Below, in pieces: positions 25,729 to 64,000 of a stretch of 64,000 bases of DNA. A program made the position numbers and the translations under genes. The notes under the pieces are model-generated. The model worked only from the letters and a program-made list of their open reading frames with translations. It ran no database searches and was not told the origin of the DNA. This DNA is from Banduia mediterranea (lineage in GTDB: Bacteria; Pseudomonadota; Gammaproteobacteria; Nevskiales; Nevskiaceae): positions 1 to 64,000 of the forward strand of contig NZ_JAVRIC010000017.1 of the NCBI RefSeq assembly GCF_031846245.1, written 5' to 3'. The number at the start of each line of letters is the position of its first letter. Positions within the stretch are counted from its first letter, which is position 1.

Positions 25729-25740
25729 GGCGCGTCGTCC

Positions 25741-38432: not shown

Positions 38433-38449
38433 TACGGTCGTTCCCGGCA

Positions 38450-42133: not shown

Positions 42134-42151
42134 GACTGGCTTGCGCTCGTG

Positions 42152-42275: not shown

Positions 42276-42277
42276 AT

Positions 42278-48339: not shown

Positions 48340-50793
48340 ATGAAGCGTTCAAAGATGGCCTGGAACACACAGGCCCTGGCATTGATGATGTTGGGCGGCA
48401 GTCTGGCGGCTCCGGGCACCCTGCTGGCGCAAGACGCCGATGAAGAGGAAAGCTCGACCGAACTGGGTACCACGGTGGTCGAAGGCGAGGTCAACGACCA
48501 GCTTGAGATTCTGCCGACCGAGCCGAACGGTTCGGTGTTCGGTTTCAACAAGACGCTGCTCGAGACGCCGCGTTCGGTGACCTCGATCAGCAACGAAATG
48601 CTGAATCGTTTCAACCTGACCGAGCTGGATGATCTGGTGGCCCTGAGCCCGGGTTCGTTCACGCAGTCGTTCTTCGGCGTGGCCGGTTCGCTGGATGTGC
48701 GCGGTACGCCGGGCGAAGTCTATTTTCGTGGTGTTCGTCGCATCGACAACCCCGGCAACTATCCGACGCCGATCGGCGCCACCGACCGTATCGACATCGT
48801 GCGCGGTCCGGCTTCCCCGATCTACGGCCCGTCGAAGATCGGTGGCTACCTGAACTTTATCCCGAAGTCGGCGCGCGCCGACACCGGGCAGTACATGCCC
48901 AAGGCCATGGGTGAGCTCAACATCACGCGCGGCAGCTGGGACAAGGACATCCTCACCGCCGAAGTCGGCGGCCCCGGCAAGATCGGCGACAAGGCCTTCG
49001 GCTATTACGTCTACGCCGAGACCGAGGATTCCGGGTCCTACTACGAGAATTCCTCCACCGACCAGAGCATCTACCAGGCCTCGTTCAACATGGACCTGAC
49101 GCCGAAGTCGCGCATCGAGTTCGGCGGCATGTATCAGGAATACGAAGGCAACCAGGTCGCGGGCTGGAACCGCCTGACGCAGGACCTGATCGACGACGGG
49201 ACCTACATCACCGGCCTGCCGATGTCCCTGGACCTTGATGGTGATGGTCTGATGTCGGCGGCGGAATCCGTGTCGCAGCATCTGACGGTCTTCCTCTTCG
49301 AAAATGGCATCGGTACGACCTCGGCCGAAGACATCAATGCCCAGCTTGACGGCAACCCGTACATGGCGCTGCAGAATCCGGGCACGACCCACATCGATGG
49401 CAGCCAGGTTCTCGTGCAGGAAGACGATGAGCTGACCGATGACGTCATCACGTTGTACTTCGACTTCATTCACGATTTCGACAGCGGCCTGACGATGACC
49501 AACAAGTCGTTCTACGAATCGCTCAAGAACAACAACGAGAACCAGTACGGCTTCTCGCAGTTCGCGGACACCTGGGCCTTCGAAGATCAGTTGATCTTCG
49601 CCTACCAGACCATGCACGGTGACAAGGTGGAGGCGGCTTACCAGTTCAGCCCCTCGATCCGCTATCAGGACTTCGAACACGGCGACAACTTCGCCTTCGA
49701 GTATTTCGATCGCCGCGACATCACCCAGCCGGGTTCGCCGGTGGATCGGCGCTCACTGGCGACCCGTGATCCCGGGCTCGAACCCTATTCGTCGCATACC
49801 AAGGGCAACTTCACCGATCTCGCCGCGGCCGTGCTGGCCGACTACACGTTCTTCAGCGACATTCACCTGCTGGCCGGCGCGCGCTACGACCAGATCGACG
49901 TGGAGTCGACCTGTATCGAGGGTGCCGACTGTGCCGACATCGCCGGAACCCAGTTCGACTCCTCCGACGACGCCTTCTCCTGGTCCGGGAGTCTTTCGTA
50001 CGACATTCCGAAGACCGGGATGACGCCGTACTTCACCAAGTCCAAGCAGACCACCTTGATCGTCGGCCAAGGTGGCCAGGTGCCGGCCAGTATCGTCATG
50101 GACGGTCATGCCGTAGCCGATTCGGAGCTCACCGAATATGGTGTCAAGGCCAGTCTGTGGGGTGGCCGCATCTACACCACTGTCGCGCATTTCAAGCAGG
50201 AGCGCGTCGACTACAACGCCCAGGACACGGTGACCAACAACACCACCGAAGCCAAGGGCTGGGAGTTCGAGTTCCGCGGCGTCATCAACGACAACTTTGC
50301 CGTAACCGGCGCCTGGACCAATCTTGAGGTTCACAACCTGACGGCAGCGCAGAACGGCAACCAGTTCTCGTTCGCCGGCGCCGAAGACCTGCCCGAGGGC
50401 GTTGATCCTTCGCGGATGTTCGGTGGTGTGGCCATCGGCAACGTCTACGATAATGAAAGCGCGCGCAAAGCCGGCGTTCCCGAGAACATCTACAGCGTCT
50501 ACCTGATCTACACCGGCACCACGGGCTGGATGTCCGGTCTGACGGCGACCGTCGGCGCCACGCATGTGGACTCGGTCTATTCGGGCTTCTCGCAGTCCGT
50601 GAAGCTGCCGGAGTACACCCTGGTGAACGCGGGCATCAACTACGAAATGACGCATTGGACGGTCGGCCTGTCCGGCAAGAACCTGACGAACGAGGAGTAC
50701 TACCGCTCCAACTTCCCGGATCTGTTCGGCTCCTCCGTGGTGCTGCCGGAAACCCCGCGCAACTGGCTGGTCACCCTGGGTTACAAGTTCTAG
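48340..50793 (+). CDS. TonB-dependent receptor with EF-hand-like loop
   Basis: An 817-residue outer-membrane receptor of the siderophore/FhuE-like barrel type. Signal peptide ends GTLLA; plug shows TPRSVTSISNEMLNRFNLTE and DIVRGPASPIYGPSKIGGYL; the barrel ends in Phe (VTLGYKF). Residues 298-309 read DLDGDGLMSAAE, a textbook EF-hand calcium loop, unusual in this family. GGGAG lies 5 bp before the ATG at 48340, favouring it over two upstream ATGs. Position between the nucleoside importer and exported nucleoside enzymes suggests a purine-related ligand; that is inference. Confidence 0.88.
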   Translation: MKRSKMAWNTQALALMMLGGSLAAPGTLLAQDADEEESSTELGTTVVEGEVNDQLEILPTEPNGSVFGFNKTLLETPRSVTSISNEMLNRFNLTELDDLVALSPGSFTQSFFGVAGSLDVRGTPGEVYFRGVRRIDNPGNYPTPIGATDRIDIVRGPASPIYGPSKIGGYLNFIPKSARADTGQYMPKAMGELNITRGSWDKDILTAEVGGPGKIGDKAFGYYVYAETEDSGSYYENSSTDQSIYQASFNMDLTPKSRIEFGGMYQEYEGNQVAGWNRLTQDLIDDGTYITGLPMSLDLDGDGLMSAAESVSQHLTVFLFENGIGTTSAEDINAQLDGNPYMALQNPGTTHIDGSQVLVQEDDELTDDVITLYFDFIHDFDSGLTMTNKSFYESLKNNNENQYGFSQFADTWAFEDQLIFAYQTMHGDKVEAAYQFSPSIRYQDFEHGDNFAFEYFDRRDITQPGSPVDRRSLATRDPGLEPYSSHTKGNFTDLAAAVLADYTFFSDIHLLAGARYDQIDVESTCIEGADCADIAGTQFDSSDDAFSWSGSLSYDIPKTGMTPYFTKSKQTTLIVGQGGQVPASIVMDGHAVADSELTEYGVKASLWGGRIYTTVAHFKQERVDYNAQDTVTNNTTEAKGWEFEFRGVINDNFAVTGAWTNLEVHNLTAAQNGNQFSFAGAEDLPEGVDPSRMFGGVAIGNVYDNESARKAGVPENIYSVYLIYTGTTGWMSGLTATVGATHVDSVYSGFSQSVKLPEYTLVNAGINYEMTHWTVGLSGKNLTNEEYYRSNFPDLFGSSVVLPETPRNWLVTLGYKF

Positions 50794-50820
50794 GGCTGCG
50801 CAGCGGGTGGTTTGGCAAGG

Positions 50821-50851
50821 GGCGCGGATGGGCGACTGTCCGCGCCTTTTT
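50821..50851 (+). terminator. Rho-independent terminator after TonB receptor
   Basis: GGCGCGGA pairs with TCCGCGCC across a 10-base loop and is followed by five T. It ends the receptor transcript 27 bp after its stop codon. Confidence 0.85.
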
Positions 50852-50873
50852 GGGGAGCCGGCAAGCATACGTC

Positions 50874-50935
50874 CGTCGTCATTCCGGACAAGCCGCAGGC
50901 TTGATCCGGAATGGTGGGCGGGAGCCCACGACGCG
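50874..50935. repeat. Dispersed repeat D (GTCATTCCGGA type)
   Basis: ATTCCGGACAAGCC pairs with GGCTTGATCCGGAAT around GCA, preceded by GTCGTC. This is the widespread chromosomal palindrome with a GTCATTCC edge; a degenerate relative opens the window. The remaining bases to 51117 carry no gene I can support. Confidence 0.65.
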
Positions 50936-51117
50936 GACGCCGAAAAAGGCTGGGCGCCAAAGCATGAGCGAATCCCCGGGCGCATTGACGTCGGCTTGGG
51001 ATACCATCCCGACCCAATTCGGGAAGCAGGCTGGCCACTCGATTCTGTGTTGGATGCGGCTCGCGCGCCGCGTCCCTTACGAATGCGATGGGTCGATAGA
51101 GCAAGGAGTAGGGGCAG

Positions 51118-52284
51118 GTGAACACGATCAATATCCACAGACTCTTGGGCTGGATATCCGGCTTCCTGTGCGTGGCTGCGGTCGCGCTGGCGCTCGCCGG
51201 ATGCTCGCCGCAGTCGGCGGAGCCGGCCCAGGTCGATACGGCCGCAGGTGATGCCGCGGCCGAGGCGAGCCAAGCCGCCATCGAATCGCCGACGCAGGCC
51301 GAACCGCTGGAGGTCAAGGTGGTGGTGGTCACGATGTTCGAAATCGGCGAGGACACGGGCGATCAGGCCGCCGAATTCCAGCTCTGGTACGAGCGCCAGA
51401 AGCTGAGCCAGCGCTTCGCGTTTCCGCATCATCACGATCTGTTCTTCAATCCGGACACCGGCGTGCTCGGCATGGTCACCGGCATCGGCACCATGAATTC
51501 GTCGAGCGCGATCATGGCGCTGGGCCTGGACCCGCGTTTCGATCTGAGCAAGGCCTACTGGCTGGTCGCCGGGATTGCCGGTTTCGATCCCGAAGACGCT
51601 TCGATCGGCTCGGCCGCCTGGGCCGAGTACCTGGTCGACGGCGATCTCGCCCATGAAATCGATCCCCGCGAGATTCCCGAAGACTGGATCACCGGTTATT
51701 TCGCGCGCGGCACCAAGTCACCGTATGAGAAGCCGCGCCCGGAATCGTCCGGCGAAGTGTTTCACCTGGACCCGAAGATGACCGAATGGGCCTATCAGCT
51801 CACCAAGGACATCGAACTGCCCGACAGCGACGTGCTGCGCCGTCGGCGTGAGAACTACGCGGGCTTTCCCAACGGTCAGAAGCCGCCGTTCGTGCTCAAG
51901 GGGGACAACCTTGCTGGCATGACCTATTGGCACGGCAAGCTGCTCAATGACTGGGCCAACCGTTGGGTCAAGTACTGGAGCGACGGCAAGGGCAATTTCG
52001 TGTCGTCCGCGATGGAAGACACCGGCACGTACCAGTCGCTGGTGTATCTCGACAAGGCCGGCAAGGTCGACAAGCAGCGCACCATGGTGCTGCGCACCGC
52101 CAGCAATTATGCGATGCAGCCGCCGGGCGTCAGTGCCGTGGACAACCTGCTGATGGACCATGACGGCTACGCCGGACTGGATGCGTCGGTCGAAGCAGCC
52201 TACGTGGTCGGCAGCACGGTGGTGGACGACATCGTCGCCCACTGGGACCGATACAAGGATCAGTTGCCGTACGAAGCGCAGTAG
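51118..52284 (+). CDS. NUP-family protein 1 (lipoprotein)
   Basis: A 388-residue member of the family named purine nucleoside permease (NUP, PF06516). It begins at GTG with AAGGAG 10 bp upstream and has a lipoprotein signal (lipobox ALAGC, Cys29). The mature part has no membrane helix, so it is an anchored soluble protein, not a channel. Conserved NUP blocks: EVKVVVVTMFEIGEDTGDQA, IMALGLDPRFDLSKAYWLVA, EIDPREIPEDWITGY, YWHGKLLNDWANRWVKYW and TMVLRTASNYAMQPPG. The family is, to my knowledge, related to nucleoside phosphorylases; a nucleoside-cleaving or -binding role is likely. Two paralogues lie within 9 kb. Confidence 0.88.
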   Translation: MNTINIHRLLGWISGFLCVAAVALALAGCSPQSAEPAQVDTAAGDAAAEASQAAIESPTQAEPLEVKVVVVTMFEIGEDTGDQAAEFQLWYERQKLSQRFAFPHHHDLFFNPDTGVLGMVTGIGTMNSSSAIMALGLDPRFDLSKAYWLVAGIAGFDPEDASIGSAAWAEYLVDGDLAHEIDPREIPEDWITGYFARGTKSPYEKPRPESSGEVFHLDPKMTEWAYQLTKDIELPDSDVLRRRRENYAGFPNGQKPPFVLKGDNLAGMTYWHGKLLNDWANRWVKYWSDGKGNFVSSAMEDTGTYQSLVYLDKAGKVDKQRTMVLRTASNYAMQPPGVSAVDNLLMDHDGYAGLDASVEAAYVVGSTVVDDIVAHWDRYKDQLPYEAQ

Positions 52285-52332
52285 CCGTCGGCCCTCGGAA
52301 CATGCCGGACGCAGCAGGCCGCAAACCATTTG

Positions 52333-53274
52333 ATGCTTGAACTGTTCTCGCAGACCCTGGCGGTCACCGTGCCGGTGTTCGCGATGGTGCTGCTGGGCAT
52401 CGTGCTCAAGCGCATCGGCTGGATCGATTCGGCTTTCATCGGCACCGCTTCGCTGCTGGTGTTCAAGGGCTGCATGCCAACGCTGATCTTCATCAGCCTG
52501 CTCAAGGCCGACACGCATGCGGCCATCGGCTTCGGCCTCCTGAGCTATTTCACGCTGGCAATGCTGGCCAGCGTCGGTCTGGCGCTGGCCTGGGGCATCT
52601 GGCGGATTCCACGGGAAGATCGTGGCGTCTATGTTCAGGGCGCTTTTCGCGGCAATTGCGGCATCGTCGGCCTGGCTCTGGCGGTCAGTTCCTACGGAGA
52701 CTTCGGGCTGGCGCTCGGCGGTATCTTCGCCGCGATCGTGATCGTGATCTACAACGTGACGTCAACCGTGATTCTGGCCCACTACAGTGCCGATATCCGT
52801 TCGAGCTGGCGCGACAACGCACGTGGTATCGCCACCAATCCGCTGATACTCGGCGTGGTGCTGGCCTTGCCGTTCGCGTTCTTCGACATCGGTCTGCCCG
52901 ATTGGCTGATGCGCTCGGCGCAGCTGTTCGCCGACCTCACCCTGCCGTTGGCGCTGATCTGCATCGGCGGCACGCTGTCGCTCGCGGCGATCGCCCAGGC
53001 CAGCCGGATCGCGGTCAGCGCCAGCACGATGAAGCTGCTCGGTCTGCCGCTGGTGTTCACCGCGCTGGCCTATGCGCTGGGCTTCCGTGGTTCGGAACTC
53101 GGCGTGATGTTCCTGTATTTCGGCAGTCCCACGGCAGCGGCCAGCTTCGTCATGGCGCGCGCCTACGGCGCCAACGACAAGCTGGCGGCGGCGATCATCG
53201 TGCTCACCACCATCGCCGCCGCGGTGACGATCAATCTCGGCATGTTCGTGCTCGGTTCTATTGGCGCGATATAG
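52333..53274 (+). CDS. AEC-family permease
   Basis: A 313-residue inner-membrane carrier with about ten helices and the AEC pattern (ELFSQTLAVTVPVFAMVLLG, FRGNCGIVGLALAVSSYG, YFGSPTAAASFVMARAYG). It follows NUP 1 by 48 bp in the same direction, so the pair may handle a product released by NUP 1, such as a base or sugar acid. The last 17 codons recur as a fragment at 54.66 kb, evidence that a second copy once existed. Confidence 0.87.
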   Translation: MLELFSQTLAVTVPVFAMVLLGIVLKRIGWIDSAFIGTASLLVFKGCMPTLIFISLLKADTHAAIGFGLLSYFTLAMLASVGLALAWGIWRIPREDRGVYVQGAFRGNCGIVGLALAVSSYGDFGLALGGIFAAIVIVIYNVTSTVILAHYSADIRSSWRDNARGIATNPLILGVVLALPFAFFDIGLPDWLMRSAQLFADLTLPLALICIGGTLSLAAIAQASRIAVSASTMKLLGLPLVFTALAYALGFRGSELGVMFLYFGSPTAAASFVMARAYGANDKLAAAIIVLTTIAAAVTINLGMFVLGSIGAI

Positions 53275-53288
53275 GGCTGGGTTTTGTC

Positions 53289-53375
53289 TCGCGCGGAGAC
53301 GCAAAGGCGCACAGAAAGAAAGACCCTGAGTCAAAAAGGCGGTTCTTTGCGCCTCCGCGTCTTTGCGAGAATCCC
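53289..53375. repeat. CTTTGCGCC-type palindromic element, copy
   Basis: GCGGAGACGCAAAGGCGC and CTTTGCGCCTCCGCGTCTTT form the two arms. It sits between the AEC gene and the end of NUP 2, on one side of that gene; a related copy lies on the other side at 54.55 kb. Confidence 0.65.
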
Positions 53376-53417
53376 GCTTTTTCGGGCGTCCGGACCTGCT
53401 CGGTTCGGGCAATCGAT

Positions 53418-54515
53418 CTACGGCTTGTCGCCTTCGAACGGACTCTGCCGGTACCGCTCCCAGTGTTCGCTGAGTTCGCGTACCACCGGGCTGCCGACCC
53501 GCCAGTGAGCTTCAACGGCGGGGCCCATCGCGCCGAAACCATCGATTTCGCGTGCCAGGCTGTCTGCGGCGGACAGGCCGGTGGGCTGCATGCTGAAGTT
53601 GCTGCCCGTGCGCAGCAGCATCACCCGCTGGAAATCGGCTTTGCCGCCAGCCTCGAGGAAACGGATCGCCTCGAGTATGCCGCTGTCTTCCACTGCGGTG
53701 GTGACGAATTCGCCCTGGCCGTGCGTCCAATAGTGGACCCAGTCGTTGGCCCATTGGTTGAGCAGCTTGCCGTGCCAGAAAGTGCTGGCGGAGATATTGT
53801 CGCCCTGCATCACCCGTGGCGGCTTTTGCGCGGCGGGAAACGTGGTGTAGCCCGCGCGGATCGTCGCAAGGGTCTTGTTGTCGTCCAGCTTGATGTCGCG
53901 GGTCAGCTCATAGGCCCAGTCGCCGAGCCTGGGGTTGAGCTTGAAGACCTTGCCCTGGCTGGTGTCTACCGGTTCGGAATATGGCGTCTTGTGGTGCAAC
54001 GGGATATAGCCGGTGGTCCAGCCCTCCGGAATTTCGCGCGCGTCAATTTCGTAACCCCAGTCGCCGTTGACGACCCACTTCCCCCAGACCGCCGAACCGA
54101 CGGTGGCGTCGTTGGGGTCGATGCCGGCAATGCCGCCGATCAGCCAGTACGCCTGGCTGAAATCGAAGCGTGGGTCCATGCCCATTGCCATGACGCTGGC
54201 CGCCGCACGGTCTGCCGTGAGGCCGGTGTAGGTGACCAGCACGCCGCGCTTGCGATCCAGGCAGGCAGCATGGGTGCTTTGCGGCAGTGGCATGCAATCC
54301 AGAGGTGAGTGGCCATCGATGCCGCGTTCGTACCAATGCTGGAATTCGCCGGCATCGTCGCCGCTGTCCGCGCCCAGTTCATAGTTGACCAGTACCACCA
54401 CGCGGATCGGGAGCGGTGCCGTGGTATCGGTGGCCGTTGCCGTCGGCGGATTCAGGCTGGTGCCGAGCAGGCCCAGTGACACGACGGTTTGGCGGAAAAG
54501 AGTTCGTAACCGCAT
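53418..54515 (-). CDS. NUP-family protein 2, exported
   Basis: A 365-residue NUP-family protein with an ordinary signal peptide (SLGLLGTSLNPPTATATD) and no further membrane segment. It has the family blocks IRVVVLVNYELGADSGDDA, VMAMGMDPRFDFSQAYWLIG, EIDAREIPEGWTTGYIPL, FWHGKLLNQWANDWVHYW and VMLLRTGSNFSMQPTG. An insert with two cysteines (DCMPLPQSTHAACLDRKRG) near residue 75 distinguishes it. It lies on the opposite strand to its neighbours and is bracketed by palindromic repeats and AEC tail copies, suggesting it arrived by duplication or insertion. Confidence 0.87.
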   Translation of the reverse strand: MRLRTLFRQTVVSLGLLGTSLNPPTATATDTTAPLPIRVVVLVNYELGADSGDDAGEFQHWYERGIDGHSPLDCMPLPQSTHAACLDRKRGVLVTYTGLTADRAAASVMAMGMDPRFDFSQAYWLIGGIAGIDPNDATVGSAVWGKWVVNGDWGYEIDAREIPEGWTTGYIPLHHKTPYSEPVDTSQGKVFKLNPRLGDWAYELTRDIKLDDNKTLATIRAGYTTFPAAQKPPRVMQGDNISASTFWHGKLLNQWANDWVHYWTHGQGEFVTTAVEDSGILEAIRFLEAGGKADFQRVMLLRTGSNFSMQPTGLSAADSLAREIDGFGAMGPAVEAHWRVGSPVVRELSEHWERYRQSPFEGDKP

Positions 54516-54544
54516 TTTGGATTTTCCTCGGTTTCGATGGTTTG

Positions 54545-54620
54545 TTTTGCGCAAAGACGCCAAGAACAGCTTTTATTCAAGCCGTTTCTTCCTTTGCGCC
54601 GTTCACGTCTTTGCGGGAAC
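54545..54620. repeat. CTTTGCGCC-type palindromic element, copy
   Basis: TTGCGCAAAGACGCCAAG and CTTTGCGCCGTTCACGTCTT are the arms. It borders NUP 2 at its 5' side and lies just before the AEC tail fragment. Confidence 0.65.
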
Positions 54621-54644
54621 GCTGCTTTTCTGGGGGTGCCACTT

Positions 54645-54716
54645 CTTCACGCTTGCCGCTATGTGGTGACGATCAATCTCGGCATGTTTGTGCTCGGTGT
54701 GGCCGGAGCAATCTAA
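54645..54716 (+). pseudogene. 3' fragment of a second AEC permease gene
   Basis: VVTINLGMFVLGVAGAI and a stop (54663-54716) repeat almost exactly the end of the AEC protein at 52.3 kb (AVTINLGMFVLGSIGAI). Upstream a shifted frame gives TLAAM, matching TTIAAA of the intact protein, so a frameshift is present. Only about 24 codons remain. Synonymous differences show the copy is old, not an assembly duplicate. Confidence 0.8.
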
Positions 54717-54786
54717 GCGCCCTGAGCGAGGCCCCACACTCGGCCGGGCTGGTGTACCGGACCGGGTGCGAGCCGGCGTGGCGCTG

Positions 54787-55698
54787 CTATCGGCTTTCGG
54801 TCATCGCGTAGTCGGTGCGCTGGCGAGCGAGGATGTGTTCGGCGGCGCTGATGCCGGACTGCGCCGCGCCGTCGGTCGGTGCGACCCAGGTCTCAGGGTT
54901 CGGGTGGTGGAAGAACACCAGTGAACGGCGCGCCTGCGGGGTCGCCTGCGGCGGAGGGTTGACTACTCGGTGCAGGTTGGCCGGAATGCGTCCTCCGGAC
55001 CACAGGTGCACCAGGTCACCGGCCTGCAGGAGGTAGGCGTCATCTCGTAGGCGTACCGGTACCCAGGCCTGTTCGGGACCGATTGCGGCTTCGAGCCCGC
55101 CGGGGGCGTCATCGGCCCACAGCAGGGTGATGCCGCCGATATCGGTGTGCGCGTGGGCACGCAGGCGACCGCTCGGTGGGGCGCCGGTCTGCGCGTGGAA
55201 ATGATTGAGCACCAGGTTCGAATGTTGTCGCAGCGTCCACGCCGGCAGGTCGGACTCGGGAAGCTTTAGCCCCTGCGCGATCATCCGGGTGAGCCGGCTC
55301 GACAGGCTATGCATGGAGGCGTAAAGCCGGGTCCAGGCTTGGCTGAAGCCAGGCGGGTGCTGTGGCCAAAGCGGGAAGCTGGTGGCCCAAGCCGCATCAT
55401 CGAGCTGCGATTGGCCAGCCGCCAGCCGGACCTCGAAGCGTTCGTGCAGATCGGCTTTCGGTCCGGATTCGTTCACCGGTTGCCAGCCATACCAGGGGCC
55501 GTCACCGGGCCAGATGACTTTCTGCTTCTCGTCGCGTGGCAGGGCGAAGAACTGATCACCGGTGCGGACCACGGCTTCACGTTCTGCGGTGGGGATACCG
55601 TGCCCGACCACGAAGACGCAGGAAGCTGCAATCAATGCGTTGACGAGGTCCTCGGCGCTGGCGGTCTGGAGATCGATGACGGGAACGGTGGCGGTCAT
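54787..55698 (-). CDS. Isopenicillin-N-synthase-like Fe(II) dioxygenase 1
   Basis: A 303-residue cytoplasmic enzyme of the DIOX_N/2OG-FeII_Oxy family. Iron ligands are His184 and Asp186 (HAHTDIGGIT) and His243 (NLHRVVNP); Arg258 in ARRSLVFF binds the 2-oxoglutarate carboxylate. The family also includes fungal thymine 7-hydroxylase, so a nucleobase substrate is possible in this context but unproven. The ATG overlaps the MFS stop by ATGA, coupling it to that transporter. Confidence 0.88.
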   Translation of the reverse strand: MTATVPVIDLQTASAEDLVNALIAASCVFVVGHGIPTAEREAVVRTGDQFFALPRDEKQKVIWPGDGPWYGWQPVNESGPKADLHERFEVRLAAGQSQLDDAAWATSFPLWPQHPPGFSQAWTRLYASMHSLSSRLTRMIAQGLKLPESDLPAWTLRQHSNLVLNHFHAQTGAPPSGRLRAHAHTDIGGITLLWADDAPGGLEAAIGPEQAWVPVRLRDDAYLLQAGDLVHLWSGGRIPANLHRVVNPPPQATPQARRSLVFFHHPNPETWVAPTDGAAQSGISAAEHILARQRTDYAMTESR

Positions 55699-57244: not shown

Positions 57245-58690
57245 TTAATGGTGGCGTGGAAGGCACAGCTTGTAGCGCTTGCACAGAAACGAGTAGCTGA
57301 CCGGCTCGACATCGTTCAGCGAGTCCCAGCCACGGCGTTTGAATGCGGCGGCGAAGCTCTCAACGCGCTTGTCATAGTCCTTGAGCAGTTTCTGCTTGAC
57401 GGGCTCCTCGACGAAGGCGAACTGCAGAGAGTTGCGGCCCATCTGCACGATCTCCTCCCAGGACAGGTTGAATTCCTTCACGGCCACGTAGTACTCGTCG
57501 CTCATGTTCGAATCCCACATGCCGCGATCATCGGTGGACAGCGCCACCGGAATGCCGATGCGCAGGTATTCCGGGAACGGATGCTGGGAATAATCGCTGA
57601 CGTATTCGAGCAACAGGTTGCTGATCAGGTTGATCTCGACCAGATAGGGACCGTGGCGCATCAGCAGCATCGTGTCCGGATCGCTGATCAGGTTGACGCC
57701 GTGGCCGATGCGCTCGGCGCCCAGCAGCAGCGTGTCGCGGACGTGCTCGTTGGGTTCGTCCACCTCGCCGCCATGAATCGACAGCTTGATGTCCGGGTAG
57801 TGGCGGCGCAGTTCGCGCAAGGTCGGCAGGAAGCGCAGCGGATAGCCCTTGTCATTGTCCTCGCGTCCGACCATGTTGATGCCCACGAACAGATCGCGGT
57901 TGCGGTCGACGAAGGCGTACAGGGTCTTGAGAATCTCCTCGGCGTTCGGCAGGAAACGCAGTAGCGTGATCTGCAGACGCAGGGTTACGCCGGTGGCCTT
58001 GGCATCCTTCCGTGCCAGCCGCTCGCGGTAGATGTCCACGACCTCATCGGGCGGGAACACGCTGCCGTCCGGTTTGAGCGCGCCGAAAGCGCCATGCTGC
58101 AATTCGAGATAGCTCAGGCCTTCGGCGCCGAAGGCCTGCATGTCACGCACCATCATGTCGGCCCAGATGTACGGGTTGTTGGATACGTCGTTGAGGCGCT
58201 GCCAGTGCGCGCCGAAGAATTCGTTGCGGCCCTCGTAGGGCTGGTCCAGGCGGATGCTGTCAAGCCAGCCAGCCTTCTCGCGCGGGCTGAGATCCTGCAG
58301 GCGCTTGTACTCGCGCTTCTCGCAGGCATCGAGCTTGTCGTAGTTGGAGGCCTGCAGATTGCGGAACAGCAGCAGGTAGGGCGCCATGCCGAACTCGTTG
58401 GTGCCGTAGTTCTCGCAGTTCTCTATACGCACCTTGGTGTAGTAGGTGTAGCCCTTGTCGGCCTGTGCCAGAGTGGCGTCCCATAGCCATTCCGACAGCA
58501 CTCCGCCGGAGAGATGGTTGTGCAGATCGCCGCCCTTGGGCAGTGCATACAGGAAGGTGTACAGCTGTTCCGGCGTGGCTTCGGCCTTGAGCTTTTCGAA
58601 CCAGGCTTGCGCCGCTTGCGCCGGTGCGCCCAGCGCAGTGATTGCCAACACCATCGCGTTCGCAAGCAGGACCAATCTACGCATCGACAT
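57245..58690 (-). CDS. Exported adenosine deaminase (ADGF-like)
   Basis: A 481-residue zinc deaminase with a signal peptide (RLVLLANAMVLAITALGAPAQA) that places it in the periplasm or outside. Metal and catalytic motifs: GGDLHNHLSGG (His-x-His), LSIHGGEVDEPN (His and catalytic Glu), GAERIGHGVNLI and PVALSTDDRGM (Asp pair). The extended N-terminal region before the barrel resembles adenosine-deaminase growth factors rather than cytosolic Add. It would turn external adenosine into inosine. It is 22 bp downstream of the exported phosphorylase-like gene. Confidence 0.9.
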   Translation of the reverse strand: MSMRRLVLLANAMVLAITALGAPAQAAQAWFEKLKAEATPEQLYTFLYALPKGGDLHNHLSGGVLSEWLWDATLAQADKGYTYYTKVRIENCENYGTNEFGMAPYLLLFRNLQASNYDKLDACEKREYKRLQDLSPREKAGWLDSIRLDQPYEGRNEFFGAHWQRLNDVSNNPYIWADMMVRDMQAFGAEGLSYLELQHGAFGALKPDGSVFPPDEVVDIYRERLARKDAKATGVTLRLQITLLRFLPNAEEILKTLYAFVDRNRDLFVGINMVGREDNDKGYPLRFLPTLRELRRHYPDIKLSIHGGEVDEPNEHVRDTLLLGAERIGHGVNLISDPDTMLLMRHGPYLVEINLISNLLLEYVSDYSQHPFPEYLRIGIPVALSTDDRGMWDSNMSDEYYVAVKEFNLSWEEIVQMGRNSLQFAFVEEPVKQKLLKDYDKRVESFAAAFKRRGWDSLNDVEPVSYSFLCKRYKLCLPRHH

Positions 58691-58712
58691 CCCCGAATTT
58701 TCGTCTGTTGAG

Positions 58713-59558
58713 TTACAGCGAGTTGAGCAGGTGCAAGGAGAACAGGGCCGCCTGCTTCGCGGCGATCGGCCCCAGGCGCAGATAGTCGTCGTTCGGCGCT
58801 TCCTGTGCCACATTGCTGCCGCCGCGCACCACCAGGAACGGCACGCCCAGATACGCGCAAACGTGCCCGAGCGGTGCGGATTCCATCTCCATGATGTCCA
58901 CCTTGAACTGTTCGCGCAGCGTGTCGATGCGCTGTTGCGTCACGCCGAACAGATCGGATGAAGCGACCACGCCACGCCGCGCCTTGACCGTATAGGTCGA
59001 GCCATTCGCCGTGACCTCCGGGCCTTCATAGCTGGCGATGGCCTGGTCGGCGATCTTCAGCAGCGCATCGGGTGGCGAGAATGCGTTCTCCATCTCGGCA
59101 CCGTCGTCGGGGCCGTTCATCGGGCGGTACACCATGTCCTTGCGCGTCAGCGAGCCATAGTCATGTTCGTAGAGCGCGGTGGCCACGATCACGTCACCGG
59201 TGCGCAACTGCTGGTTGATGCGTGCGCCGGTGCCACTCATCAGTACCAGCCGAGGCTTGAACTCGCTGATGAACAGGGTGCTGGTCATGCCGGTAAAGGT
59301 CTTGCCGATGCCGGTGATCGCCACGATCACCGGCTTGCCGTCGATATGGCCCTGCCAGTAGGGAATGCCCCACAAGGATTTCTTCTCGGCATCCTTCATC
59401 GCCTCGATGAACGGCGGAATCTCCTGCGGCACGGCGCCGAGGATCAGAATAGTGTCGCTGGGCTTGTAGTGCGTCGGCGTGGCCGGCGCCTCGGCGGCCT
59501 GGGCCAGTCCGGTGACGAGCAGCAGCCCGCCGAGCAGTGTCCTGATGATGGCTTTCAT
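58713..59558 (-). CDS. Exported nucleoside phosphorylase-like protein
   Basis: A 281-residue PNP_UDP_1 protein with signal peptide (GGLLLVTGLAQA). Family blocks: ILILGAVPQEIPPF near residue 38, VLMSGTGARIN near 105, IMEMESAPLGHVCAYLGVPF near 222 with the ribose-binding Glu pair, and VRGGSNVAQE near 245. MTA/SAH nucleosidases have a catalytic Asp where this has Asn249, as in 6-oxopurine phosphorylases of the trimeric type. It therefore probably acts on inosine or guanosine. The 15-bp gap to NUP 3 and 22-bp gap to the deaminase show an operon. Confidence 0.85.
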   Translation of the reverse strand: MKAIIRTLLGGLLLVTGLAQAAEAPATPTHYKPSDTILILGAVPQEIPPFIEAMKDAEKKSLWGIPYWQGHIDGKPVIVAITGIGKTFTGMTSTLFISEFKPRLVLMSGTGARINQQLRTGDVIVATALYEHDYGSLTRKDMVYRPMNGPDDGAEMENAFSPPDALLKIADQAIASYEGPEVTANGSTYTVKARRGVVASSDLFGVTQQRIDTLREQFKVDIMEMESAPLGHVCAYLGVPFLVVRGGSNVAQEAPNDDYLRLGPIAAKQAALFSLHLLNSL

Positions 59559-59573
59559 GCCTGGGTCTTCCGT

Positions 59574-60623
59574 TCAGTTCGAGGAGGGTGTGGCATCGCG
59601 GTATCGCGGCCAGTCGGAGAGCAGTTCGTCGACGACCACGCCGCCGACCTGATAGGCCGCTTCCAGCGCCGGGCGTCCGTTCTCCGGGTAGGGCGCCGTC
59701 GTGCTCCAGGCGGCGGTCTTGCCCTTGGGCGGCATCGAGTAGTTGCTGGCCGTGCGCAGCACCATCACACGGTCCAGATCGACCCGCTGCGTGCGCGACA
59801 GGCGGCGCAGCGCGGTCAGGGTGCCGCTGTCCTCCATCTCGCCCATCATGAAATTGCGGTCCGCGCCGGCCTGCAGGCGCACCCAGTCGTTGGCCCATTG
59901 GTTGAGCTTCTCGCCATGCCAGTAGGTGCTGGCCGATAGACTCTCGCCCATGGTCACGAACGGTGGTTTGACCGCGTTCGGGTAGCCCTTGAACTGCTTG
60001 CGGAATTCGGCGATGCCGCGGCTGTCCGCCACCGGATGATCCTTGCTCAGCGCGTAGGCCCATTCGGCGAGTTCGACATTGAGCGGGAAGTGGATCGTGT
60101 CCACGGTCCAGCCGTCGGCCTTGTCGTTGGGTTTCTTGGCACCGAGCGGCAGCAGGCCGTAGGGCCAGTCCTCGGGAATTTCGCGTCCGTCGATTTCGTA
60201 GAGCAGATCGCCGTCGACCACGGCGCGTGCCCAGGCGGCCGTGCCCAGCGAGACGTCCTCGGGGTCGCCGCCGGCGATGCCGGCGACCAGCCAGTACGCG
60301 CGGCTCAGATCGAAGCGCGGGTCCAGGCCCAGCGCCATGATCGAGGCCGTGGCATTGGTGATGCCGCCGCCGGTGCAGATCGCCAGCAGGCCGTCGTCAT
60401 TCATGCGCAGCGCGTATTCGCCGAGCGGAAACGGGAATTCACGATCGAGCTTGCGCCGCTCCACCCAGAGCTGGAACTCGCCGGGATCGTCGCCGGTGGG
60501 TTCGCCGTTTTCGAACATCGAGACGACCACCACCTTGACCGGTATGGGTTCGGCGACGGCAGCACAAGCCAGCACCAGTGCGCCGGCGGCGAGCGCCGCA
60601 TTCAGGAGCTTGAATCGGGACAT
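59574..60623 (-). CDS. NUP-family protein 3, exported
   Basis: A 349-residue NUP-family protein with signal peptide (GALVLACAAVA) and soluble mature part. Blocks: VKVVVVSMFENGEPTGDDPG, IMALGLDPRFDLSRAYWLVA, EIDGREIPEDWPYGLLPL, YWHGEKLNQWANDWVRLQ, FMMGEMEDSGTLTAL and VMVLRTASNYSMPPKG. It stands first in the cluster with the exported phosphorylase-like protein and deaminase, so the three probably act on the same nucleosides in the periplasm. Confidence 0.88.
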   Translation of the reverse strand: MSRFKLLNAALAAGALVLACAAVAEPIPVKVVVVSMFENGEPTGDDPGEFQLWVERRKLDREFPFPLGEYALRMNDDGLLAICTGGGITNATASIMALGLDPRFDLSRAYWLVAGIAGGDPEDVSLGTAAWARAVVDGDLLYEIDGREIPEDWPYGLLPLGAKKPNDKADGWTVDTIHFPLNVELAEWAYALSKDHPVADSRGIAEFRKQFKGYPNAVKPPFVTMGESLSASTYWHGEKLNQWANDWVRLQAGADRNFMMGEMEDSGTLTALRRLSRTQRVDLDRVMVLRTASNYSMPPKGKTAAWSTTAPYPENGRPALEAAYQVGGVVVDELLSDWPRYRDATPSSN

Positions 60624-60666
60624 CGGGTTTCCTGTAGTCGGGGTCGCTGTCTGTCCGAAGCGGATC

Positions 60667-61683
60667 TCAGGCAGCGGCAAGCTGGTGGTCGAGCATTGCC
60701 AGATAGCGCGCGCGTTGCGCATCGTCGATCCAGGCCACGACGAAGGCATTGCGTACCAGCTGTGTGATCTCGTCCAGGCTCAGGCCGCCCTCCTCGTGCA
60801 ATGCCAGCAGGTTTTCGTTGACGTAGGCGCGAAAGTACGCAGGGTCGTCGGAGTTGATCGTGGCGCGCATGCCCAGTTCCAGCATGCGACGGATGTGCGT
60901 GGCCGTGAGGTCCTGAACCACGAAGCGGTTGGACACAGGACACACCGTCAGGCCCAAGCCGCGTTGCACGATGTCCGCGCAGATCGCGGGGTCTTCGAGC
61001 GAGTTGATGCCGTGGTCGATGCGGTCCACGCCAATCTCGTCCAGACATTGGCGGATGTGGCCCAGCGTGTTCTCCTGGTTCACGTCGCAATGCATCGTCA
61101 GGCGGTAGCCCTCGGCGCGGGCGCGTTTGAACACCTCGGCGAACTTGCTGGGCGGGTTGCCCTTTTCGTCCGAATCCAGACCCACGCCGACGATCCAGTC
61201 CTTGTAGGGCAAGGATTGTTCCAGCGCTTCCATCGCCGATTCGGCGCTCATGTCGCGCAGAAAACACAGGATCAGCTGGGACTCGATACCGAGTTCGGCG
61301 GCCGCCTGCTTCTGGGCCAGACGAATGCCGGTGATCACGGTTTCGAAACTCACGCCGCGACTGGTATGCGCCTGCGGGTCGAAGAACGGTTCGCAGTAGA
61401 GCACGTTCTGCTCGCGCGCCTTCTTCAGGTAGGCGTAGCTCAGCTCGTAGAAGTCCTGCTCCGTGAGCAGCACGCGCATCGCGCTGTAGTAGATCGCCAG
61501 AAACGACGGCAGGTCATGGAAGTCGTAGGCCGCGACCAGCGCCTCGGGCGTGTCGTAATCCAGTGCCACGCCGTTGCGCTGCGCCAGCGCGAAGCTCAGC
61601 TCCGGTTCCAGCGTGCCTTCGAGGTGGACGTGCAACTCGGCTTTCGGCAGTTTCGCGATCAGTTCTTGTGCGGGTGTCGGCAT
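60667..61683 (-). CDS. Adenine deaminase, adenosine-deaminase fold
   Basis: A 338-residue cytoplasmic zinc enzyme. LHVHLEG (His18, His20), MHCDVNQENT, DRIDHGINSLED and TINSDDPAYF are the metal and catalytic motifs. The stretch GVGLDSDEKGNPPSKF and the lack of an adenosine-type GDE segment place it with Aah1-type adenine deaminases (as PA0148), giving hypoxanthine for xanthine dehydrogenase. No signal peptide is present. It is divergent from dioxygenase 2 across a strong palindrome. Confidence 0.9.
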   Translation of the reverse strand: MPTPAQELIAKLPKAELHVHLEGTLEPELSFALAQRNGVALDYDTPEALVAAYDFHDLPSFLAIYYSAMRVLLTEQDFYELSYAYLKKAREQNVLYCEPFFDPQAHTSRGVSFETVITGIRLAQKQAAAELGIESQLILCFLRDMSAESAMEALEQSLPYKDWIVGVGLDSDEKGNPPSKFAEVFKRARAEGYRLTMHCDVNQENTLGHIRQCLDEIGVDRIDHGINSLEDPAICADIVQRGLGLTVCPVSNRFVVQDLTATHIRRMLELGMRATINSDDPAYFRAYVNENLLALHEEGGLSLDEITQLVRNAFVVAWIDDAQRARYLAMLDHQLAAA

Positions 61684-61743
61684 GGTTGGCGGTCGGCGGT
61701 GGCGGCAGGCTTTCGAAAAGGCCGGCGCGGCTGGCTGGAAAAG

Positions 61744-61778
61744 TGCATGCAACCGTATGCAACGATTGTGCACAATCG
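61744..61778. promoter_or_regulatory. Operator region between adenine deaminase and dioxygenase 2
   Basis: CGATTGTG-CACAATCG (61763-61778) is a perfect 16-bp palindrome, 12 bp before the dioxygenase ATG. Immediately upstream lie two direct copies, TGCATGCAAC and CGTATGCAAC (61744-61763). The ATTGT/ACAAT arms fit a dimeric GntR/FCD-type operator. GTATGCAA recurs at 46508 and 46705. The link to the local GntR protein is inference. Confidence 0.65.
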
Positions 61779-61790
61779 AGTTCTTCAGCC

Positions 61791-62846
61791 ATGAAATTTC
61801 ATGTTCCCCTTATCGATATCGCTCCCTACGCCAATGACGGCGAGGATTCCCTGGCACGTGCCGACACCGCCGAGGCGCTCGCTCAGGCTTGTCGCGAGGT
61901 CGGTTTCGTGCAGATTCTGGGGCACGGCGTGCCCGATTCGGTGCTCGCAGCGCTGGCCTCGGCGATGGACGGTTTCTTCTCTCAGCCATCCGAGTACAAG
62001 CGGTGTTACCGCGCCGCTCCCGAAATCAACCGGGGTTACGCGCCGCCGCACAGCGAGTCGCTGTCCTTGTCGCTGGGTATCGGGACGCCAGCGGCGGCGG
62101 ATTATTTCGAGGCCTTCAATGTCGGCACGGCAGCTTCGGATTTTCCGGGGCTGGAACTGCCGGCGCAGGTGTATGCTGAAAATCTGTGGCCGCAGCCCGT
62201 AGCGGGTTTCGACGACCGGCAGTTCCGCGGCGCGGTCGAAACCTATTTCGCCGAGGCCGGCCGCGTCGCCCGCATCTTGACGCGAATCTTCGCCGATGCG
62301 CTGGGCGTGGATGCCGGGGTGTTCGAGCGGGTCAGCGACCATTCGGTGGACGTACTGCGCATGAATCACTACGCACTGCCGCCCGGCACCGCGGCCGACG
62401 GACCGGACCCGGTAGGCATGGGGGCGCACACCGACTACGGCATCGTCACCGTGCTGTGGGCCGACCCCGTGCCGGGCCTGCAGGTATTGGGCGGAGACTC
62501 GGTCTGGCATGACGTACAGCCGGCACCAGGCGCTCTGCTGGTCAACCTGGGTGATCTCACCGCCCGCTGGACGCACGACCGCTGGCGCTCCACCCTGCAT
62601 CGCGTGATCCCGCCGGTCGTCGATGGGCGTATCGTTCGGCGCCGTTCGGCGGCCTATTTTCACGATGGCAATATCGATGCTCGGATCGAGACGATCCCGA
62701 GCTGTCTGGCCGCAGGCGAAGCCGCTTATCCGCCGATCACCGTGGGCGAGCACTTGGCGGCGAAGCTCGCCGGATCGCGCGCCGGTCAGCCGAACCGCGA
62801 GGCGGGCAGCGAAGCCGAGCGTTTGCGCGCCGCCCGCGACGACTGA
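61791..62846 (+). CDS. Isopenicillin-N-synthase-like Fe(II) dioxygenase 2
   Basis: A 351-residue non-heme iron enzyme with the DIOX_N domain (VPLIDIAPYAN, REVGFVQILGHGVP) and the 2OG oxygenase core. Ligands are His213, Asp215 (GAHTDYGIVTVLW) and His270 (TLHRVIPP), with Arg285 in RRRSAAYF. It is only distantly similar to dioxygenase 1. It precedes the amidohydrolase by 24 bp in the same direction and shares a regulatory palindrome with adenine deaminase, which ties it to purine use. Confidence 0.9.
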   Translation: MKFHVPLIDIAPYANDGEDSLARADTAEALAQACREVGFVQILGHGVPDSVLAALASAMDGFFSQPSEYKRCYRAAPEINRGYAPPHSESLSLSLGIGTPAAADYFEAFNVGTAASDFPGLELPAQVYAENLWPQPVAGFDDRQFRGAVETYFAEAGRVARILTRIFADALGVDAGVFERVSDHSVDVLRMNHYALPPGTAADGPDPVGMGAHTDYGIVTVLWADPVPGLQVLGGDSVWHDVQPAPGALLVNLGDLTARWTHDRWRSTLHRVIPPVVDGRIVRRRSAAYFHDGNIDARIETIPSCLAAGEAAYPPITVGEHLAAKLAGSRAGQPNREAGSEAERLRAARDD

Positions 62847-62870
62847 ACCGACCTGCAGGAGCCTCAGGCC

Positions 62871-64000
62871 ATGAAGCAGTTATTGACAGGCGCCGACGTG
62901 ATCGCGACCCAGGACGACACCCGCCGCGAGATCGCCGATGGCGCGGTGTTCGTCGATGGCGGCTGGATCGCCGCAATCGGCAGCTGCGCCGAGGTCGAGG
63001 CCTGGATGGCGCAGGACCCTGCTGCGCGCATGCCGGATCGCCGCCACGATCTGCGTGGCTGCGTGCTCACGCCGGGATTGGTCAATGGCCATCATCACCT
63101 CTACCAGACCTTGACGCGCACCATCGGCACCGGCGGCGGTCTGGCCTTGTTCGACTGGCTCAAGACGCTCTACCCGATCTGGGGGCGCATGGACCCGGAT
63201 GCGGTCTACCTCAGCGCCAAGCTCGGGCTCGCCGAGCTGCTGCTGTCCGGTGCCACTACCGTGGCCGACCATCTCTACATGTTCCAAAATGGTGCACGGC
63301 TCGACGACGAAATCGTGGCTGCGCGTGAACTCGGCGTGCGCTTCCATCCCACACGCGGCTCGATGAGCGTCGGCGAAAGCCAGGGCGGTCTGCCACCGGA
63401 CGCACTGGTGGAAGCCGAGGATCACATCCTGGCCGACAGCCTGCGCGTGATCGAACAGTTTCACGATCCGGCGCCGGGTTCGATGCTGCGCATCGGTCTG
63501 GCGCCATGTTCTCCGTTCTCGGTCAGCGCCGCGCTGATGCGCGAGTCCGCCGCGATGGCCCGCAGCCATGCGCAGGTGCGCCTGCATACCCATCTGGCCG
63601 AAACCGCCGACGAAACCCGCTACTGCCTCGACCGCTTCGGCCTGCGCCCGATCGACTACGCCGAATCCCTGGGCTGGCTCGGCGACGATGTCTGGTTCGC
63701 GCATGTGGTGCATCCCGACAGCACCGGGATCGACAAGCTCGCACACAGTTGCAGCGGCGTCTGCCACTGTCCCAGCAGCAACATGATCCTCGCCTCCGGC
63801 ATCGCGCCGGTGCGCGAGATGATCGAGCGCGGCGTGCGTGTCGGCCTGGGCGTGGACGGCTCCGCCAGCAACGACGGCAATCACATGCTCGGCGAGGCGC
63901 GTCAGGCGATGTTGCTGCAACGCGTCGGCTGGCCCGGATTCGAGTCACGCGCCGATCGCATGTCGGCGCGCGAGGCGCTAAAGCTGGCGACGCGCGGCGG
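62871..64000 (+). CDS. 8-oxoguanine deaminase-type amidohydrolase, partial
   Basis: The frame is open from ATG 62871 (GCAGGAG upstream) to the end of the window; 376 codons are seen of about 450 expected. Metal motifs are LVNGHHHLYQTL (His74, His76), VRLHTHLAET, WFAHVVHP and GLGVDGSASNDGNHML (Asp). The pattern NGHHHLYQ and CHCPSSNMIL matches 8-oxoguanine deaminase (as PA0142) and hydroxyatrazine-type aminohydrolases. It would convert 8-oxoguanine to urate, which PuuD uses. The C-terminus is outside the window. Confidence 0.87.
   Translation, partial: MKQLLTGADVIATQDDTRREIADGAVFVDGGWIAAIGSCAEVEAWMAQDPAARMPDRRHDLRGCVLTPGLVNGHHHLYQTLTRTIGTGGGLALFDWLKTLYPIWGRMDPDAVYLSAKLGLAELLLSGATTVADHLYMFQNGARLDDEIVAARELGVRFHPTRGSMSVGESQGGLPPDALVEAEDHILADSLRVIEQFHDPAPGSMLRIGLAPCSPFSVSAALMRESAAMARSHAQVRLHTHLAETADETRYCLDRFGLRPIDYAESLGWLGDDVWFAHVVHPDSTGIDKLAHSCSGVCHCPSSNMILASGIAPVREMIERGVRVGLGVDGSASNDGNHMLGEARQAMLLQRVGWPGFESRADRMSAREALKLATRG

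What the first reader, a model, noticed from the sequence alone, without database searches (positions are those of the whole stretch)
48340..64000. Candidate envelope-located purine nucleoside processing system
Within about 13 kb lie a TonB receptor, three exported NUP-family proteins, an exported adenosine deaminase and an exported phosphorylase-like protein, followed by cytoplasmic adenine and 8-oxoguanine deaminases. Signal peptides are visible on five of these enzymes. Nucleoside catabolism is normally cytoplasmic. Here deamination and base release appear to be moved outside the inner membrane, feeding the BMP-type importer and the 13-gene urate pathway next door. I know of no described system with this composition.
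Basis: partly seen in the sequence, partly recalled or inferred. Interest (0 to 1): 0.85.

Follow-up and report, generated by a model that had tools for sequence, protein, structure and literature searches.

The report
Exported purine nucleoside cleavage gene cluster
This bacterium appears to strip the sugar from purine nucleosides outside its inner membrane, using an exported deaminase and four exported base-releasing enzymes, three of them from a family probably misnamed a permease, and then to import the bare bases as a nitrogen source; the location has a precedent, but this enzyme set seems undescribed.

Summary
A TonB receptor, three exported NUP proteins, an exported ADGF-type adenosine deaminase, an exported nucleosidase-like protein and cytoplasmic adenine and 8-oxoguanine deaminases lie at 48.3-64 kb, beside a 13-gene urate block with a BMP importer. 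Export signals recur in relatives (ADGF 82 of 85, NUP 75 of 75, nucleosidase 7 of 7; controls 2 of 48). NUP lies within about 10 kb of ADGF in 57 of 80 loci.

The interpretation needs three corrections. The 'phosphorylase' is MTAN-like, probably a hydrolase. NUP is unlikely to be a permease: its predicted structure is an MTAN fold (Z 24.7) with the catalytic Glu, Glu and Arg kept. Periplasmic nucleoside cleavage has a precedent, Pseudomonas Nuh (PMC5437708).

All four exported nucleosidases carry Asn where MTAN has its catalytic Asp, suggesting 6-oxopurine specificity and a reason for the exported adenosine deaminase upstream. The BMP protein is AtzT-like (guanine Kd 0.11 uM, PMC6834077), so free bases are probably imported. 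No Xan_ur_permease-family protein, and no ribokinase above cut-off, was found in the genome, so purine nitrogen is the likely goal.

New variant of a known kind. No activity was measured.

The parts
48340..50793 (+). TonB-dependent receptor with signal peptide; candidate outer-membrane importer for the pathway (ligand unknown)
   Evidence: PF00593/PF07715; export-like N-terminus; homologue in 39 of 80 ADGF loci
51118..52284 (+). NUP1: exported lipoprotein of PF06516, MTAN fold, predicted Asn-type purine nucleosidase
   Evidence: lipobox LAGC; AF2 pLDDT 89.9; Z 24.7 to MTAN 4wkb; E86, E300, R326, S329, N330; GTG start
52330..53274 (+). AEC-family (Mem_trans) transporter, role unknown
   Evidence: PF03547; 8 TM-like segments; found in 0 of 80 ADGF loci
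53418..54515 (-). NUP2: exported PF06516 nucleosidase-like protein
   Evidence: signal peptide; motif EAVERSN
54787..55698 (-). 2OG-Fe(II) oxygenase, overlapping the MFS gene by 4 bp; role unknown
   Evidence: PF03171/PF14226
55695..57035 (-). TsgA-like MFS transporter
   Evidence: NF002982 240.6 bits, cut-off 221
57245..58690 (-). Exported ADGF-type adenosine deaminase
   Evidence: PF00962; SP MSMRRLVLLANAMVLAITALGAPAQA; active-site columns HHHEHDD in 16 of 16 aligned
58713..59558 (-). Exported MTAN-like nucleosidase with Asp197 replaced by Asn (N249)
   Evidence: PF01048; alignment A2
59574..60623 (-). NUP3: exported PF06516 nucleosidase-like protein, motif EEMERSN identical to that of the MTAN-like protein
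60667..61683 (-). Cytoplasmic adenosine/adenine deaminase family enzyme; first gene of a four-gene run (gaps 43, 15 and 22 bp)
   Evidence: NF006850 420.4 bits, cut-off 419; no signal peptide; gaps; start at MPTPAQ chosen by eye
61791..62846 (+). 2OG-Fe(II) oxygenase, role unknown
   Evidence: PF03171/PF14226; start chosen by eye
62871..64000 (+). 8-oxoguanine deaminase (cut by the window end; complete to contig position 64268)
   Evidence: NF006055 529.1 bits on the cut protein, cut-off 532; L155:372-1769
46844..47926 (+). BMP/PnrA-like substrate-binding protein, AtzT type (free purine base binder)
   Evidence: E 3.1e-150 to AtzT 6pi5
37417..41813 (-). ABC transporter permeases and ATPase that go with the BMP protein (ORF starts uncertain)
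   Evidence: PF02653, PF00005; NF047928/29/30 below cut-off
41030..46044 (-). Xanthine dehydrogenase XdhC, XdhB, XdhA (ORF starts uncertain)
46061..46741 (-). HIU hydrolase (ORF start uncertain)
   Evidence: PF00576
31222..37409 (-). UraD/allantoate amidohydrolase fusion, PuuE allantoinase, GntR-like regulator (below-cut-off matches), guanine deaminase, urate oxidase with cytochrome domain

Best explanation
The cluster encodes an envelope-located route from purine nucleosides to free bases. Nucleosides cross the outer membrane, perhaps through the TonB receptor. The exported ADGF-type enzyme turns adenosine into inosine. Four exported enzymes of the MTAN fold (three NUP proteins, one of them lipid-anchored, and one MTAN-like protein) hydrolyse 6-oxopurine nucleosides (inosine, guanosine) to base plus ribose; an asparagine in place of MTAN's catalytic aspartate sets this preference. 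The AtzT-type BMP ABC transporter takes the bases across the inner membrane, where adenine, guanine and 8-oxoguanine deaminases, xanthine dehydrogenase and the urate/allantoin enzymes release the nitrogen. Shown by computation: gene content, export signals, synteny, the fold of NUP (predicted) and conserved catalytic residues. Inferred: hydrolysis, substrate preference, order of steps, base import and the role of the TonB receptor.
For: Gene content. Export signals conserved in relatives against cytoplasmic controls. NUP within about 10 kb of ADGF in 57 of 80 loci, 35 of 41 with full flanks; TonB receptor in 39 of 80, while NUP is in 4 of 274 class genomes, own included. NUP1 model: all of the 50 Foldseek rows shown are MTAN or futalosine hydrolase; Z 24.7, rmsd 2.4, 230 residues; a distant Asp-type NUP gives Z 24.6, rmsd 2.6, 233 residues. 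NUP and MTAN-like profiles align over 208 columns with catalytic positions in register, though weakly (E 0.0004, probability 35%). Glu, Glu and Arg invariant in all 27 NUPs of A4 (3 window, 24 of 27 outside NUPs). Asn in 57 of 57 NUPs of A1 (3 window, 54 of 69 eligible locus NUPs) and in 7 of 7 MTAN-like proteins given. ADGF active-site columns intact in 16 of 16 aligned (window and 15 of 85 hits). No transmembrane segment in NUP beyond the signal. BMP protein close to guanine-binding AtzT (PMC6834077). No PF00860 permease and no ribokinase above cut-off in the genome. Nitrate-assimilation-like genes follow.
Against: No enzyme activity, expression or localisation data. A CNT nucleoside transporter is encoded elsewhere in the genome, so intact nucleosides can probably also enter. 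The cytoplasmic adenine deaminase has no obvious job if all adenosine is deaminated outside; it may serve free adenine, or some NUP may accept adenosine. MTAN Asp-to-Asn variants were made and crystallised with substrate (titles), so Asn could also mean low activity. 23 of 80 ADGF loci show no NUP, 6 of them with full flanks. In the even class sample the ADGF search found only the own genome (1 of 274), so the three other NUP genomes there lack a close ADGF. Two Ser-type NUP genomes also have an exported ADGF-type gene, which the Asn rule does not foresee. Hypoxanthine is not in the AtzT binding table that I saw, and two pocket residues differ here.
Confidence: 0.62

Rival explanations
1. The exported set is a broad nucleosidase/deaminase battery without the adenosine-to-inosine-to-hypoxanthine order: the NUPs cleave adenosine too, adenine is imported and deaminated inside by the adenine deaminase, and ADGF acts on another substrate such as AMP or 5'-modified adenosines.
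For: The best PDB match of ADGF is a mollusc AMP deaminase. A cytoplasmic adenine deaminase sits in the same gene run. AtzT binds adenine at 2.5 uM (PMC6834077). C. albicans NUP lets adenine-requiring yeast grow on adenosine (PMC9431476).
Against: All 54 NUPs aligned from ADGF loci carry Asn, whereas NUPs with Asp occur in 11 sampled genomes of which 0 have an exported ADGF-type gene, against 6 of 12 Asn-type genomes. In one Asp-type genome NUP instead lies within 9 kb of an adenine deaminase relative and a BMP gene (L149), as expected if Asp-type forms release adenine.
Confidence: 0.25
2. NUP proteins are genuine nucleoside transporters or periplasmic binding proteins, as their name says.
For: The name, and the yeast uptake-complementation history of the C. 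albicans protein (PMC9431476, passages).
Against: No transmembrane segment beyond the signal; MTAN fold with catalytic residues; the same paper reports growth on adenosine without sensitivity to toyocamycin, which fits extracellular cleavage followed by adenine uptake (my reading; the authors conclude narrower transport).
Confidence: 0.06
3. The cluster removes toxic or signalling nucleosides (methylthioadenosine, nucleoside antibiotics, 8-oxo-nucleosides) rather than feeding on purines.
For: MTAN-like fold; 8-oxoguanine deaminase at the edge; periplasmic MTAN known in Aeromonas (title; PMC6302742 passage).
Against: Direct neighbourhood of a complete urate pathway and base importer here, and of XDH, HIU hydrolase or guanine deaminase in some other loci (XDH 8, HIU hydrolase 5, guanine deaminase 11 of 80; L138, L139, L145).
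Confidence: 0.08

Closest known systems
Pseudomonas aeruginosa periplasmic nucleoside hydrolase Nuh (PMC5437708, PMC5522865)
   Same: Purine nucleosides are hydrolysed in the periplasm and, in the authors' view, the base matters as nitrogen source while ribose is used poorly.
   Different: One hydrolase (IU_nuc_hydro type, recalled) instead of four MTAN-fold enzymes, and no exported deaminase in the passages read. Shared neighbours (8-oxoguanine and adenine deaminase near nuh) are recalled, not tested.
MTA/SAH nucleosidase (MTAN), including periplasmic MTAN of Aeromonas hydrophila (5b7q)
   Same: Fold, catalytic Glu12, Glu174, Arg193 and Ser196 equivalents; export in the Aeromonas case.
   Different: Asp197 is Asn in the window's four proteins; NUPs are longer and about 14% identical.
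AtzT / BMP-type purine base-binding proteins (6pi5, 3s99; PMC6834077)
   Same: E 3.1e-150 over 345 residues; five of seven guanine-contacting residues identical by my reading.
   Different: Tyr45 to Trp, Asn220 to Asp; here next to urate catabolism genes rather than atrazine genes.
ADGF / CECR1 secreted adenosine deaminases of animals
   Same: A_deaminase domain with the same metal-binding and catalytic motifs (alignment), exported.
   Different: Bacterial; scores 112.8 bits against TIGR01431 with cut-off 315.
Candida albicans 'purine nucleoside permease' (PMC9431476)
   Same: Carries the name of the NUP family (family membership of the yeast protein recalled).
   Different: Eukaryotic; reported as a transporter; sequence not examined here.

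Membership tests
NP-I / PNP_UDP nucleosidase superfamily (for NUP1-3) | Phosphorylase/MTAN alpha-beta fold | tested here: met
   NUP1 AF2 model pLDDT 89.9; Z 24.7, rmsd 2.4, 230 aligned to 4wkb; NUP2 and NUP3 by homology (46 and 49% identity)
NP-I / PNP_UDP nucleosidase superfamily (for NUP1-3) | Ribose-binding Glu (MTAN E174) | tested here: met
   E300 equivalent in 27 of 27 (A4) and 57 of 57 (A1)
MTAN proper (for NUP1-3 and the MTAN-like protein) | Catalytic acid Asp197 | tested here: not met
   Asn in all four window proteins; so not filed as MTAN
MTAN proper (for NUP1-3 and the MTAN-like protein) | Water-activating Glu12 (hydrolase, not phosphorylase) | tested here: met
   E46 in the MTAN-like protein; E86 in NUP by profile alignment
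MTAN proper (for the MTAN-like protein) | Curated NCBIfam score | tested here: inconclusive
   TIGR01704 82.9 bits over cut-off 73.8, but NF004079 139.9 under cut-off 169
Membrane permease (for NUP) | Several transmembrane segments | tested here: not met
   None beyond the signal in NUP1-3; AEC and MFS controls show 8 and 9
ADGF/CECR1 subfamily | Metal ligands and catalytic residues of adenosine deaminases | tested here: met
   HHHEHDD in 16 of 16 aligned
ADGF/CECR1 subfamily | TIGR01431 curated cut-off | tested here: not met
   112.8 against 315 bits; called ADGF-type only
AtzT-type purine base-binding protein | Close sequence match to AtzT | tested here: met
   E 3.1e-150 over 345 residues
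AtzT-type purine base-binding protein | Guanine-contacting residues | tested here: inconclusive
   5 of 7 identical, one aromatic swap, one Asn to Asp; read by eye with positions from PMC6834077
Nuh-type system (IU_nuc_hydro) | PF01156 hydrolase in the cluster | tested here: not met
   The one PF01156 match of the genome is on another contig; it has an export-like N-terminus
Periplasmic nucleoside catabolism (function) | Enzyme activity in the periplasm | not testable with these tools
   needs fractionation and assay

The most novel reading that the evidence does not exclude
The whole 'purine nucleoside permease' family (PF06516) is misnamed: it is a family of secreted MTAN-fold nucleosidases, divided by one residue (Asp or Asn at the catalytic-acid position) into forms for 6-amino and 6-oxo purine nucleosides, and the Asn form travels with an exported adenosine deaminase that makes its substrate. 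The transport credited to the Candida protein would then be extracellular cleavage followed by adenine uptake.
Probability: 0.55. Interest if true: 0.68.

Novelty: new variant of a known kind. Interest (0 to 1): 0.58.

Why it matters
If true, a family long annotated as a transporter, and counted as such in an environmental survey (COG5042 is listed among transporters in PMC2847192), is a set of secreted enzymes. It would also explain how bacteria without a standard nucleobase permease use nucleosides released by lysed cells as nitrogen, and it turns one catalytic residue into a testable predictor of substrate.

Tried and rejected
Phosphorylase reading of the 58713-59558 protein: not favoured, because it groups with hydrolases and keeps Glu12; a phosphorolytic activity is not excluded.

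PDB relatives of NUP by sequence: none, with a single sequence up to E 1 and with a profile up to E 5; only the fold search answered.

Rule test with futalosine hydrolase (TIGR03664), to see whether a hypoxanthine-releasing relative carries Asn: the two genomes reached gave only matches below the cut-off, so the Asn/Asp specificity rule rests on recalled knowledge of purine nucleoside phosphorylases (Asn243 in the human enzyme) and MTAN, not on a test here.

Class-level co-occurrence of ADGF and NUP: not testable in the even sample, because the ADGF search at E 1e-50 found only the own genome (1 of 274).

Asn/Asp versus exported ADGF: 5 of 12 against 0 of 11 genomes, p 0.037; with a sixth Asn-type genome (G604, start judged by eye) 6 of 12, p 0.014. 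Counted by taxonomic family it is only 3 of 6 against 0 of 4, so relatedness may explain it. Two Ser-type genomes also have an exported ADGF-type gene. ADGF-type genes scoring worse than E 1e-15 would have been missed. One weak NUP match (G353, below the cut-off) was dropped. The weak ADGF-profile hits of G455 and G458 (377-codon frames) were not inspected.

Nitrogen-control (sigma-54) promoters: 35 matches at up to 2 mismatches against 35.2 expected, so no evidence.

tRNA and Rfam scans of the window: nothing.

Literature: PF06516 is in no paper of the library; 'purine nucleoside permease' is in 17, in whose listings I saw no bacterial nucleosidase (passages read in four); searches for a TonB/ADGF/nucleoside system listed none. 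Most subscription journals are not in that library. NUP's place in the PUP superfamily is already in print (PMC9815663, passage).
Full report
What is there. The window is contig C17:1-64000 of a 3.83 Mb genome whose best ADGF matches are in Nevskia, Hydrocarboniphaga and Solimonas. On the minus strand a tight four-gene run, adenine deaminase, NUP3, MTAN-like protein, ADGF, has gaps of 43, 15 and 22 bp; this order recurs in L004, L005, L006, L008, L009 and L013. NUP1 follows the TonB receptor on the plus strand. The flanking urate block has 13 genes: XdhA, XdhB, XdhC, HIU hydrolase, urate oxidase with a cytochrome domain, guanine deaminase, PuuE, a UraD/allantoate amidohydrolase fusion, a GntR-like regulator, two ABC permeases, an ATPase and the BMP protein.

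Export. With a simple home-made rule (hydrophobic stretch, positive start, cleavage site or lipobox), applied alike to all, relatives scored as exported in 82 of 85 (ADGF), 51 of 51 (NUP1), 23 of 23 (NUP3), 1 of 1 (NUP2), 7 of 7 (MTAN-like) and 37 of 40 (TonB receptor); controls gave 2 of 37 (adenine deaminase relatives) and 0 of 11 (guanine deaminase). The rule chooses among start codons, some hits are cut by contig ends, and it is no substitute for SignalP. NUP1-like proteins carry a lipobox in 37 of 51.

Conservation. Of 80 loci found with the ADGF protein (93 relatives, best 80 kept), NUP lies in the locus in 57, the TonB receptor in 39, both in 36, the MTAN-like protein in 7; of the 41 loci with at least 9 kb on each side, NUP is in 35 and the TonB receptor in 24; in 23 of 80 NUP follows ADGF directly on the same strand. 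These loci were chosen by likeness to this ADGF. In even samples NUP is rare: 4 of 274 class genomes, own included, and 26 of 398 phylum genomes, 25 over the cut-off; the ADGF itself was found in 1 of 274, the own. A locus of the same phylum but another class (L145) pairs NUP with a divergent exported ADGF-type gene, guanine deaminase, XDH and HIU hydrolase. Against the pattern, 23 loci have no NUP, six of them with full flanks.

What NUP is. NUP1 has no PDB relative by sequence. Its AlphaFold model (pLDDT 89.9) matches MTAN: the 50 Foldseek rows shown are all MTAN or futalosine hydrolase, and VIA-align gives Z 24.7, rmsd 2.4 over 230 residues to 4wkb, with a periplasmic MTAN (5b7q) third at Z 24.6. 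A distant NUP (L095) gives Z 24.6, rmsd 2.6 over 233. A profile of 84 NUPs aligns with the MTAN-like family over 208 columns (E 0.0004, probability 35%, so weak alone) and puts E86 on MTAN Glu12, M299-E300 on Met173-Glu174, and R326-S329-N330 on Arg193-Ser196-Asp197. Glu, Glu and Arg are invariant in the 27 NUPs of A4. No membrane segments exist beyond the signal. NUP had already been placed in the PUP superfamily (PMC9815663, passage). The fold and residues predict a nucleosidase; activity is inferred.

The asparagine. The last position is Asn in all 57 NUPs of A1 (3 from the window, 54 of 69 eligible locus NUPs) and in the 7 MTAN-like proteins given (window and 6 of 7 locus relatives). In 25 NUP-bearing genomes drawn without regard to ADGF (one weak match dropped), 14 NUPs in 12 genomes have Asn, 11 in 11 genomes Asp, 2 in 2 genomes Ser. 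Exported ADGF-type genes occur in 6 of 12, 0 of 11 and 2 of 2; in four of the six NUP and ADGF lie within about 10 kb, in a fifth next to each other (L145), in the sixth on different contigs. The three Asp-type genomes with any hit have short frames without a signal (L129, L130) or an adenine deaminase relative (L149). In L149 an Asp-type NUP lies within 9 kb of an adenine deaminase relative and a BMP gene. In purine nucleoside phosphorylases Asn at this place goes with inosine/guanosine and Asp with adenosine (recalled). I therefore propose that Asn-type NUPs need ADGF to turn adenosine into inosine. The association is confounded by kinship (3 of 6 families against 0 of 4).

Downstream. The BMP protein is AtzT-like (E 3.1e-150). 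AtzT co-purified with guanine (Kd 0.11 uM; adenine 2.5 uM; GTP above 8 mM; PMC6834077, part 2 of 5 and passages). Read by eye, five of seven contacts are identical, Tyr45 is Trp and Asn220 is Asp. The genome shows no PF00860 permease, though other base permease families were not searched, and no ribokinase above cut-off, the best of three weak matches scoring 81 of 300 bits. PF01048 has three matches in the genome: the window's, a methylthioinosine phosphorylase (L084) and one beside a CBASS cyclase (L086). Against exclusivity, a CNT transporter exists, and an exported IU_nuc_hydro relative sits elsewhere. Beyond the window lie genes that look like nitrate assimilation, which fits nitrogen scavenging.

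Precedent. P. [quoted passage not shown] PMC5522865 whole text). So the principle is known; what appears new is the enzyme set, the linkage of exported ADGF with NUP, and the reading of NUP as a nucleosidase. C. albicans NUP expressed in yeast gave growth on adenosine but not toyocamycin sensitivity (PMC9431476, passages); its authors conclude narrower transport, but extracellular cleavage plus adenine uptake explains it equally well (my inference; the yeast sequence was not examined).

Verdict. New variant of a known kind.

Noticed in passing
L086:763-3297 (G000:C23, about 50 kb): A nucleosidase of the PNP_UDP_1 family with a long N-terminal extension lies next to a CBASS oligonucleotide cyclase (343.9 bits, cut-off 200): a CBASS defence system with a possible nucleosidase effector.
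   Followed up: partly
L087:1357-2511: The genome's only IU_nuc_hydro match has a signal-like N-terminus and an unusual LDDDVPMLHP stretch where the family usually has DTDxGxDD (motif recalled), so its activity is uncertain.
   Followed up: partly
54787-55698 (-) and 61791-62846 (+): Two 2OG-Fe oxygenases of unknown role lie in and at the edge of the cluster; a homologue of the second is in 9 of 80 ADGF loci.
   Followed up: no
52330-53274 (+): An AEC-family transporter behind NUP1, in none of the 80 other loci.
   Followed up: no
22556-29071 (-): A second molybdenum hydroxylase-like gene with its own XdhC-type maturation gene and another TonB receptor.
   Followed up: no
L155:3166-13735 (beyond the window end): Molybdopterin reductase, pyridine nucleotide-disulphide oxidoreductase, Rieske protein and ABC transporter genes that look like nitrate assimilation follow the 8-oxoguanine deaminase.
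   Followed up: partly
window:36171-37409 (-): Urate oxidase of the Urate_ox_N type with a C-terminal cytochrome-like domain (match just under Pfam's cut-off).
   Followed up: no
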